64,000 bases of DNA, taken from contig NZ_CP015105.1 of assembly GCF_002214545.1 (NCBI RefSeq), forward strand, positions 1,488,001 through 1,552,000, in the 5' to 3' direction. How positions within the stretch are numbered: the first letter of the stretch is position 1; the number at the start of each line of letters is the position of its first letter. Both the position numbers and the translations under genes were made by a program. This DNA comes from Thermococcus thioreducens. GTDB taxonomy: Archaea > Methanobacteriota_B > Thermococci > Thermococcales > Thermococcaceae. Shown here in pieces: positions 29,329 to 56,357 of this stretch. A model generated the notes under the pieces. The model was not told the origin of the DNA. It worked only from the letters and a program-made list of their open reading frames with translations, and searched no databases.

Positions 29329-29459
29329 GATGACTTCATTTTTGGAAATCTCACCCTGCTCATATCTTTATTGCCCTAATAAAATTAGAATCCTGACTGG
29401 AATTCAAGAGTTCTCACGAAAAGATTAAAAACTTTGAAGTTGAGGGAATCATGAAGACC

Positions 29460-29524
29460 AAGCCCTTTGAGTGGTGGCCCCGGTAGACCCTCATGAAGCC
29501 GGGGATGCACCGTGAGAAGGGCTT
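29460..29524 (+). ncRNA. candidate structured RNA: long hairpin with its own promoter
   Basis: AAGCCCTT (29460-29467) pairs with AAGGGCTT (29517-29524). Inside, after tandem G-A mismatches, GGTG pairs with CACC and CCCCGG (29478-29483) with CCGGGG (29499-29504), leaving an apical loop with TAGA and ATGA. A BRE/TATA-like GAAAAGATTAAAAAC lies at about 29418-29432, placing the transcript start near 29450. The fold recalls H/ACA RNAs (stem, pocket, stem, kink-type loop), but ATG rather than ACA follows the stem. A short frame (MKTKPFEWWPR) also begins at 29451. The function is unknown. Confidence 0.4.
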
Positions 29525-29537
29525 ATGATTGCCCCCT

Positions 29538-30026
29538 TTATAATATCCCCTTTCTGCGGAGCGCTTTTTTAAGGGCCCTCAGGTTAGGAGTTTGCTCGTA
29601 AATCTCACGGCTGATATATGCGATGTTGTCAGTCAAAAGAACAATGTGACGGAACTCCCACCTTTTCTTGGCGATACTCTCTCTGAAAACGTTTTTCCTG
29701 CTTTGATATTCTCGCAACTTTTTTGATAGCACGACGTCATCGATTATCAAAACCCTTGCATCGCGTTCAAACTTGGCCATTTGCTCATACAGATCGTCAA
29801 AATAAGGAGTTACCTCTACGTAGTCCAACAGAGATTTAATGGACGCAAACCTCTGAGGAAACTTTGAGACATAATTTCTTTTCTCCTGCTTTTTAAGCTC
29901 GGATATGTGTCTAAGCCAGCCAGATTTTCTCCTAAGTTCCCCGAGGTTTTCGTATTTTATAACCACCAGGGCATAGATCGTTCTTTTCTCTTTGCTCCTG
30001 TCCACTGAAACTATCAGCGTTTTCAT
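29538..30026 (-). CDS. hypothetical protein, 162 residues
   Basis: I do not recognise this protein. It starts MKTLIVSVDRSKEKRTIYALVV, a beta hairpin with an early Asp, and has a second strand with acidic residues, DARVLIIDDVVLSKKL, and a third, HIVLLTDNIAYISRE. The spread of Asp residues on beta strands could suit an RNase H-like or PIN-like metal site, but this is conjecture. The C-terminus is basic (LKKALRRKGIL). GGTGG precedes the ATG. It is convergent with the candidate hairpin RNA, whose 3' end is 13 bases away. The region is more AT-rich than average. Confidence 0.65.
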   Translation of the reverse strand: MKTLIVSVDRSKEKRTIYALVVIKYENLGELRRKSGWLRHISELKKQEKRNYVSKFPQRFASIKSLLDYVEVTPYFDDLYEQMAKFERDARVLIIDDVVLSKKLREYQSRKNVFRESIAKKRWEFRHIVLLTDNIAYISREIYEQTPNLRALKKALRRKGIL

Positions 30027-30198
30027 TCAACCACCAGTCCCATTATCGATGGGTTTCTTTGGGTTTCTGAGAGTTCTTTATGGCTTACAGTTGTAAACCT
30101 CGTCCTTTTTACTTTTTGCCCTCAAGTTGGAGCCCTTGTCCTCACGACAAGCGAAACCCCTAAATACTTCCACGCCGTACTAAGCCGGGTGGTGTCCG

Positions 30199-30378
30199 TT
30201 GCAGGCCAACGTCAACCTCGATGTTCTTTTGGAGAAGATGATGGCGGAGCTGGAGAAGGCGAAAAAATTCAGGGCACTCAAACCCGATAATGTCATTGAG
30301 AACTGCATAGACAGCGCTCGTAAGGCCGCTGAGGAGAGAGACTCTGGGAACGTATTAGCTGGAAAAACAAAGAGATAA
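30199..30378 (+). CDS. small ORF, probably the frameshifted N-terminus of the following membrane protein
   Basis: A 59-codon frame opens at TTG 30199 after GGTGG and a promoter (GCGAAACC, CTAAATAC near 30160). It encodes a charged helical peptide (MQANVNLDVLLEKMMAELEK). The frame of the next gene is open back to 30333 with no start codon, and encodes similar charged helix (ISWKNKEISELEDHEEKL). The two frames overlap at 30333-30378, where GAGGAGAGAGAC offers a slip site. One missing base would join them into a single protein of about 480 residues. Confidence 0.55.
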   Translation: MQANVNLDVLLEKMMAELEKAKKFRALKPDNVIENCIDSARKAAEERDSGNVLAGKTKR

Positions 30379-56287: not shown

Positions 56288-56357
56288 TGTGCCCCCGGGG
56301 AGCGAAGGGGAATCACAGCTCGCCGAGGCGCTCATCCCCCGCGGTTTCCCGGGGGCA
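56288..56357 (-). ncRNA. H/ACA box sRNA guiding pseudouridylation
   Basis: The minus strand reads as a single H/ACA hairpin. The lower stem is GCCCCCGGG (56356-56348) with CCCGGGGGC, and ACA follows directly (56290-56288). The pocket has left guide AAACCGC and right guide UUCGCUC. The upper stem is GGGG/CCCC, then a kink-turn from AUGAG and GUGAU under a short GC-rich apex. About 16 nt separate the pocket from ACA. The guides predict U in GAGCG-UN-GCGGUUU, probably in 23S rRNA. They look, from memory, the same as those of Pyrococcus furiosus Pf91. Confidence 0.9.

What the first reader, a model, noticed from the sequence alone, without database searches (positions are those of the whole stretch)
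29418..29530. Promoter-driven hairpin RNA of unknown class
Eight-pair and six-pair stems with tandem G-A mismatches, an apical loop with TAGA and ATGA, and a BRE/TATA-like sequence placed to start transcription near 29450. It resembles an H/ACA RNA but lacks ACA, and it contains two tiny frames (starting 29451 and 29493). It lies in AT-rich sequence beside genes I cannot assign.
Basis: partly seen in the sequence, partly recalled or inferred. Interest (0 to 1): 0.6.

Follow-up and report, generated by a model that had tools for sequence, protein, structure and literature searches.

The report
Hairpin RNA paired with mobile nuclease
In heat-loving Thermococcus archaea this small folded RNA travels as a 0.8-kb unit with a gene for a tiny protein that has the fold of an RNA/DNA-cutting enzyme, which suggests an undescribed RNA-protein pair in which the RNA probably restrains or equips the enzyme.

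Summary
The hairpin is real. It folds far better than shuffled sequence (z -4.5) and matches no Rfam family. It has 20 relatives in Thermococcaceae whose stems show compensatory changes. The H/ACA idea fails: there is no guide pocket and no ACA. A 162-aa gene (29538-30026, minus strand) converges on the RNA. AlphaFold gives it an RNase H fold (pLDDT 95, nearest RNase HII) with conserved acidic residues. It has no Pfam or NCBIfam family. All 32 homologous genes examined, in seven subfamilies, have a GC-rich foldable sequence on the opposite strand at their 3' end, and RNA type tracks protein type in 31 of 32. An empty site shows that RNA plus gene entered here as a 777-bp unit. RNAs also occur beside broken genes, beside replaced genes, or alone, and in tandem arrays on pT26-2-like plasmids; no gene was found without an RNA. 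Best reading: an RNA-protein module working like a toxin-antitoxin pair, with the RNA binding and restraining the nuclease. An RNA-equipped effector is the main rival. The nearest known kind is the DUF3800-associated RNAs, but membership tests fail. No expression or activity data were available.

The parts
29367..30143 (.). Mobile unit: RNA gene plus convergent protein gene, each with its own upstream region (777 bp; boundaries uncertain by about 2 bp because of a shared TC)
   Evidence: Empty site in relative G062 contig C31...TATC joined directly to ACGACAAGCGAAACCCCTAAAT; 59 of 61 congeneric genomes have the flanking helicase sequence, most without the insert
29415..29433 (+). BRE/TATA-like promoter of the RNA (TATA part 29424-29431)
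   Evidence: Sequence; TATA-like element upstream of the RNA at nearly all homologous loci, 8/8 matches at 9 of 21; no transcript data
29460..29524 (+). Structured RNA core, type A: P1, GA/GA tandem, middle helix, upper helix, K-loop-like apex (YRGA...AUGAAG)
   Evidence: Fold z -4.46; 21 covariance-model matches in 115 genomes; covariation above all 500 shuffles
29485..29497 (+). Apical loop AGACCCUCAUGAA, K-loop-like; sequence almost invariant
   Evidence: Alignments A5 and A9
29538..30026 (-). 162-aa RNase H-fold protein, convergent partner; conserved D9, D96, E116, D133-N134
   Evidence: AlphaFold2 pLDDT 95.1, pTM 0.90; Foldseek best match RNase HII 1uax, E 1.7e-4, prob 1.00; superfamily alignment A7; no Pfam family and no NCBIfam family above its cut-off

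Best explanation
The hairpin is the RNA half of a mobile two-part module. Its partner is the convergent gene 29538-30026 (minus strand), a minimal RNase H-fold nuclease. The RNA is transcribed from its own promoter near 29420 and folds into a rigid rod with a GA/GA tandem and a K-loop-like apex. The most likely mechanism is that it binds its cognate protein (possibly with L7Ae) and holds it inactive, so that cells losing the element are left with unrestrained nuclease, as in toxin-antitoxin addiction. Shown by sequence: the structure, the strict RNA-protein linkage, type matching, movement as one unit, and survival of RNAs beside broken or replaced proteins. Inferred: transcription, RNA-protein binding, nuclease activity, and inhibition as the outcome of binding. 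(Confidence that RNA and protein form one functional module: about 0.9; the figure below is for the antidote mechanism.)
For: Linkage: all 32 protein-gene ends examined, in seven subfamilies, have a GC-enriched flank whose antisense strand folds better than the sense strand (mean z -2.7 against -0.4 for 73 control ORFs). The RNA nearest each gene is of the same type as the protein in 31 of 32. Mobility: precise empty site, a second insertion that replaced part of an AlbA_2-type gene, two copies per genome at different places, and copies in pT26-2-like plasmids. Antidote-like asymmetry: of 21 type A RNA loci, 11 sit beside an intact protein, 5 beside a broken one (L003 with D9G and a stop, L008, L014, L015, L017), 4 have none (L012, L018, L087, L088) and 1 runs off a contig. 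No protein gene was found without an RNA. When a type A protein replaced a type C protein (L011 against L056), the type C RNA stayed behind. L015 and L017 carry opposite frameshifts in the same T-run, yet their RNAs differ at 3 of 63 bases. In Thermococcus kodakarensis, loss of the pT26-2-family elements TKV2 and TKV3 harms growth (PMC6972569).
Against: No toxicity, binding or transcript has been shown. The protein gene is about eight times longer than the RNA, so neutral decay would also break proteins first, and the asymmetry is not proof. RNase H-fold toxins with RNA antitoxins are not an established kind (own knowledge). The convergent layout differs from type III toxin-antitoxin loci. The TKV growth effect concerns whole integrated elements. 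Some broken proteins are in MAGs and could be assembly errors.
Confidence: 0.45

Rival explanations
1. RNA-equipped effector: the RNA is an activating scaffold or guide of the RNase H-fold protein (an RNP nuclease used for defence or competition between mobile elements), not its inhibitor.
For: RNase H/RuvC-type fold with conserved acidic residues; faint PADLOC match to the Cas12f RuvC region, E 0.008; matched RNA and protein types; DUF3800 proteins with an RNase H fold are linked to Cas12a2 and to ncRNAs (PMC10910872).
Against: No variable, guide-like segment at a fixed place: the leaders differ in length and sequence even between copies at the same locus. Orphan RNAs and tandem arrays of RNAs of several types have no obvious use in this model.
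Confidence: 0.33
2. The structure is a cis element of the convergent gene (bidirectional 3' end, terminator or mRNA stabiliser), not a separate RNA.
For: It always abuts the 3' end of the gene, and the sense strand also folds fairly well (mean z -1.9).
Against: The antisense strand folds better in 32 of 32. Unpaired loop letters are among the most conserved. TATA-like elements lie upstream of the RNA. RNAs persist with no gene beside them (L012, L018, L087).
Confidence: 0.1
3. A divergent H/ACA-like modification guide or other L7Ae-bound host RNA.
For: K-loop-like apex with tandem G-A pairs and an overall hairpin shape.
Against: No ACA, no internal guide pocket (2x2 GA/GA only), patchy distribution (19 of 115 genomes), mobility with a gene, and no Rfam match.
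Confidence: 0.07

Closest known systems
DUF3800-associated RNA motifs (Rfam families such as RF02969 DUF3800-I and RF02968 DUF3800-IX; named in PMC11701678)
   Same: Structured RNA beside a small RNase H-fold protein of unknown function. Several genuine DUF3800 genes in Thermococcales also have a GC-rich hairpin-forming sequence antisense at their 3' end.
   Different: No Rfam DUF3800 model matches this RNA, the protein has no PF12686 match, and profile comparison is only suggestive (hhalign prob 17.8, E 0.0014).
Type III toxin-antitoxin systems (ToxIN, CptIN)
   Same: Works-like: a small protein kept with a structured RNA on mobile elements, and the RNA outlives the protein.
   Different: The RNase H fold is not the ToxN fold, and the RNA gene is convergent rather than an upstream repeat array in the same operon.
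Archaeal H/ACA guide RNAs (e.g. Pab160, present in this window)
   Same: Hairpin with a K-loop-like apex.
   Different: No ACA, no guide pocket, mobile, and paired with a nuclease-like gene.
TnpB/IscB OMEGA RNAs
   Same: RNA from the 3' side of a RuvC/RNase H-fold gene on mobile DNA.
   Different: Opposite strand, a protein of only 162 aa, and no transposase or guide region recognised.
Kink-turn ncRNAs of Pyrococcus abyssi (sRk series, PMC3124441)
   Same: Thermococcal intergenic RNAs, some with K-turns.
   Different: The part of that paper read here lists no RNA paired with this gene family; sequences were not compared directly.

Membership tests
H/ACA guide RNA | ACA box 14-16 nt from the pair closing the internal loop | tested here: not met
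   AUGAU follows P1 in the window; 3' letters vary among relatives with no conserved ACA; criterion from PMC4652768
H/ACA guide RNA | Internal loop with two guide strands | tested here: not met
   Only a GA/GA 2x2 loop; the would-be guide strands pair with each other (GUGGUG/CACCGU), with a U-A to C-G change in L087
H/ACA guide RNA | K-turn or K-loop bound by L7Ae | not testable with these tools
   Sequence fits a K-loop (YRGA ... AUGAAG), inference only
H/ACA guide RNA | Match to an Rfam H/ACA family | tested here: not met
   Pab160 at 56288-56356 was recognised in the same scan
DUF3800-associated RNA | Match to an Rfam DUF3800 covariance model | tested here: not met
DUF3800-associated RNA | Partner protein belongs to PF12686 | tested here: not met
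   No Pfam match
DUF3800-associated RNA | Remote homology of partner to DUF3800 | tested here: inconclusive
   hhalign prob 17.8, E 0.0014, aligning IIDD...LLTDNIAY with viD...QvADavaN
DUF3800-associated RNA | Partner has an RNase H fold | tested here: met
Type III toxin-antitoxin | ToxN-type endoribonuclease fold | tested here: not met
   RNase H fold, best matches RNase HII
Type III toxin-antitoxin | RNA repeats upstream in the same operon | tested here: not met
   RNA is convergent, downstream and single in the window
Type III toxin-antitoxin | RNA inhibits a toxic protein | not testable with these tools
   Needs expression assays
OMEGA RNA (TnpB/IscB) | RNA on the same strand, overlapping the 3' end of a TnpB/IscB gene | tested here: not met
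   RNA is on the opposite strand and the protein has no TnpB/IscB Pfam match

The most novel reading that the evidence does not exclude
A mobile RNA-protein system found so far only in Thermococcaceae: a minimal 160-190-aa RNase H-fold nuclease with its own cognate structured RNA, in at least seven matched types, spread on plasmids, a virus-like element and chromosomes, with arrays of orphan RNAs acting as antidotes to (or guides for) foreign copies.
Probability: 0.4. Interest if true: 0.75.

Novelty: new variant of a known kind. Interest (0 to 1): 0.6.

Why it matters
It turns an unassigned hairpin and an unassigned gene into a testable pair, and gives a compact archaeal relative or look-alike of the DUF3800-associated RNAs, a set for which no function was found in the papers read. 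Thermococcus kodakarensis is genetically tractable and appears to carry a copy with an RNA array (L010; genome identified by size, from memory), so antidote or effector action could be tested directly.

Tried and rejected
1) H/ACA guide: rejected on ACA, pocket and Rfam. 2) Tiny peptides: frames not conserved. 3) Sigma-type promoter and intrinsic terminator scan: nothing above chance, and not suited to archaea. 4) Plasmid and phage collections: the RNA gave no match; the 162-aa protein gave none, its 183-aa relative hit plasmid pT26-2, and subfamilies F, D and C gave none. 5) IMG/VR: no match for RNA or protein. 6) The first covariation count, on a MAFFT alignment that misplaced L018, was not above shuffles; after realignment to the covariance model and addition of L087 and L088 it exceeded all 500, but that alignment is fitted to the structure and most double changes come from two or three divergent rows. 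7) L019 (G060) matched only the leader in an unrelated gene start and was dropped. 8) Viral fold library: nothing convincing. 9) The Weinberg 2017 paper on DUF3800 RNAs is not held.

Full report
Observation. The sequence 29460-29524 (+) folds as P1 (9 pairs), GA/GA tandem, middle helix (6 pairs), upper helix (7 pairs) and a 13-nt loop. Its energy is far below dinucleotide shuffles (z -4.46, 0 of 200). A BRE/TATA-like run lies 28 nt upstream of P1. Nothing in Rfam 15 matches, even at relaxed thresholds, whereas the same scan found a true H/ACA RNA (Pab160) at 56288-56356.

Relatives of the RNA. BLAST found 20 hits in 18 of 94 family genomes, including the window itself. One of these, L019, covers only the leader and was dropped. 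A covariance model found 21 copies in 19 of 115 genomes, patchily spread and sometimes two per genome at different places. On the model-fitted alignment 95% of pair cells are standard, 8 of 22 pairs have changes on both sides (shuffled mean 2.4, 0 of 500 as high), and sliding the partners destroys pairing. The support is real but carried mostly by divergent rows (L018, L087), and an earlier MAFFT alignment that misplaced L018 and lacked L087 and L088 showed none. The loop (YRGA...AUGAAG) and the strand CACCGUGAG are conserved in sequence. The apex fits a kink-loop, by inference.

Partner. At nearly every copy the RNA converges on a gene like window 29538-30026 (-). The protein has no Pfam family, no NCBIfam family above its cut-off, and a PHROG of unknown function (phrog_31239, E 1.5e-14). 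AlphaFold2 on 13 homologues gives pLDDT 95.1 and pTM 0.90. Foldseek places it with RNase HII (1uax, E 1.7e-4, prob 1.00, TM 0.54), so the fold is RNase H-like. D9, D96, E116 and D133-N134 are conserved across the superfamily, consistent with an active site.

A general rule. Profile search found further subfamilies, including t26-18p of plasmid pT26-2 and a copy in a region with virus-like neighbours. All 32 gene ends examined have a GC-enriched flank that folds better on the antisense strand (mean z -2.7 antisense, -1.9 sense, control -0.4 with sd 1.1). One of them (L114) is a decayed gene whose end was set by eye. The RNA types differ between subfamilies but agree within them: the nearest RNA by sequence belongs to the same protein type in 31 of 32. 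That agreement is expected if the pair is inherited together, and it shows that pairs stay together. Several genuine DUF3800 genes of Thermococcales also have an antisense hairpin-forming flank, but not all, and with weak z-scores.

Mobility. In relative G062 contig C31 the sequence corresponding to window ...29366 joins directly to 30144..., so the insert is 777 bp and holds only the RNA and the gene with their upstream regions. In L020 and its relatives a similar unit replaced about 577 bp of an AlbA_2-type gene. pT26-2-like elements carry tandem RNAs of types C, A and B beside one type B protein (L010, L014, L016). pT26-2 itself has C and B but lacks A. L011 and L056 share the upstream small gene (t26-17-like) and the type C RNA but have different proteins: the protein was replaced and the old RNA stayed.

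Asymmetry. Of 21 type A RNA loci, 11 have an intact protein beside them, 5 a broken one, 4 none, and 1 runs off a contig. No protein lacked an RNA. L015 and L017 have seven and five T where six keep the frame, that is, opposite frameshifts at the same T-run, while the rest of both genes stays open and the RNAs differ at 3 of 63 bases. This is what an antidote RNA predicts. The larger size of the gene as a mutation target is an alternative cause, so the asymmetry supports rather than proves the model.

Interpretation. Established here: a conserved RNA, a conserved partner, strict linkage and movement as a unit. Inferred: transcription, binding, nuclease activity and inhibition. I prefer inhibition (toxin-antitoxin-like) over an RNA-activated or RNA-guided effector because there is no guide-like segment and because orphan RNAs and RNA arrays persist. 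The published growth defect on losing TKV2 and TKV3 (PMC6972569) is compatible with addiction but concerns whole elements.

Known kinds. H/ACA membership fails on tested features. The DUF3800-associated RNAs are the nearest kind: DUF3800 has an RNase H fold and ncRNA associations (PMC10910872). Here the Rfam models and PF12686 do not match, and remote homology is inconclusive. Type III toxin-antitoxin membership fails on fold and layout, although the working principle may be alike.

Noticed in passing
L087:1449-1617 (G005): An orphan RNA of the A/F type, without a partner gene in its genome, lies directly beside the last repeat of a CRISPR array (CRISPR-DR41).
   Followed up: partly
window 30148-30263: This stretch recurs at 80-91% identity in many Thermococcus genomes, including a second copy in the window's own genome (G000:C1:1744366-1744456): a multi-copy promoter or N-terminus of the small ORF at 30199.
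   Followed up: no
L015:985-1500 and L017:985-1500: Opposite frameshifts (7 T and 5 T where 6 keep the frame) in the same T-run of the partner gene in two genomes of one related genus; could be independent inactivation, phase variation or transcriptional slippage.
   Followed up: partly
L041:12480-12680 and equivalents in L009, L011, L020, L052, L055, L069: A 66-76-aa gene (t26-17-like, no Pfam family) overlaps the start of the nuclease gene in many copies; degenerate in L020 and reduced to a few codons in the window.
   Followed up: partly
L098-L104, 3' flank of the DUF3800 gene: Genuine DUF3800 genes have a nearly identical antisense hairpin sequence (GAGAUGAGGGUAAGUCCCGGUGUCCGCC...) that matches no Rfam family.
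   Followed up: partly
L108:1210-1372 (own genome near 1988.5 kb): Downstream of a DUF3800 gene of the window's own genome, two copies of a GGGCGGUCACGCCC hairpin sequence.
   Followed up: no
L006, L007, L008, L020: The RNA plus nuclease unit of this group has replaced part of an AlbA_2-type gene (checked in L020); the gene is continuous in L057, which has another type of the module beside it.
   Followed up: partly
L049:57-3300 (G022:C1 near 46.7 kb): A subfamily F copy of the module sits among virus-like genes (LamG-type structural protein, small basic proteins, zinc-finger protein).
   Followed up: no
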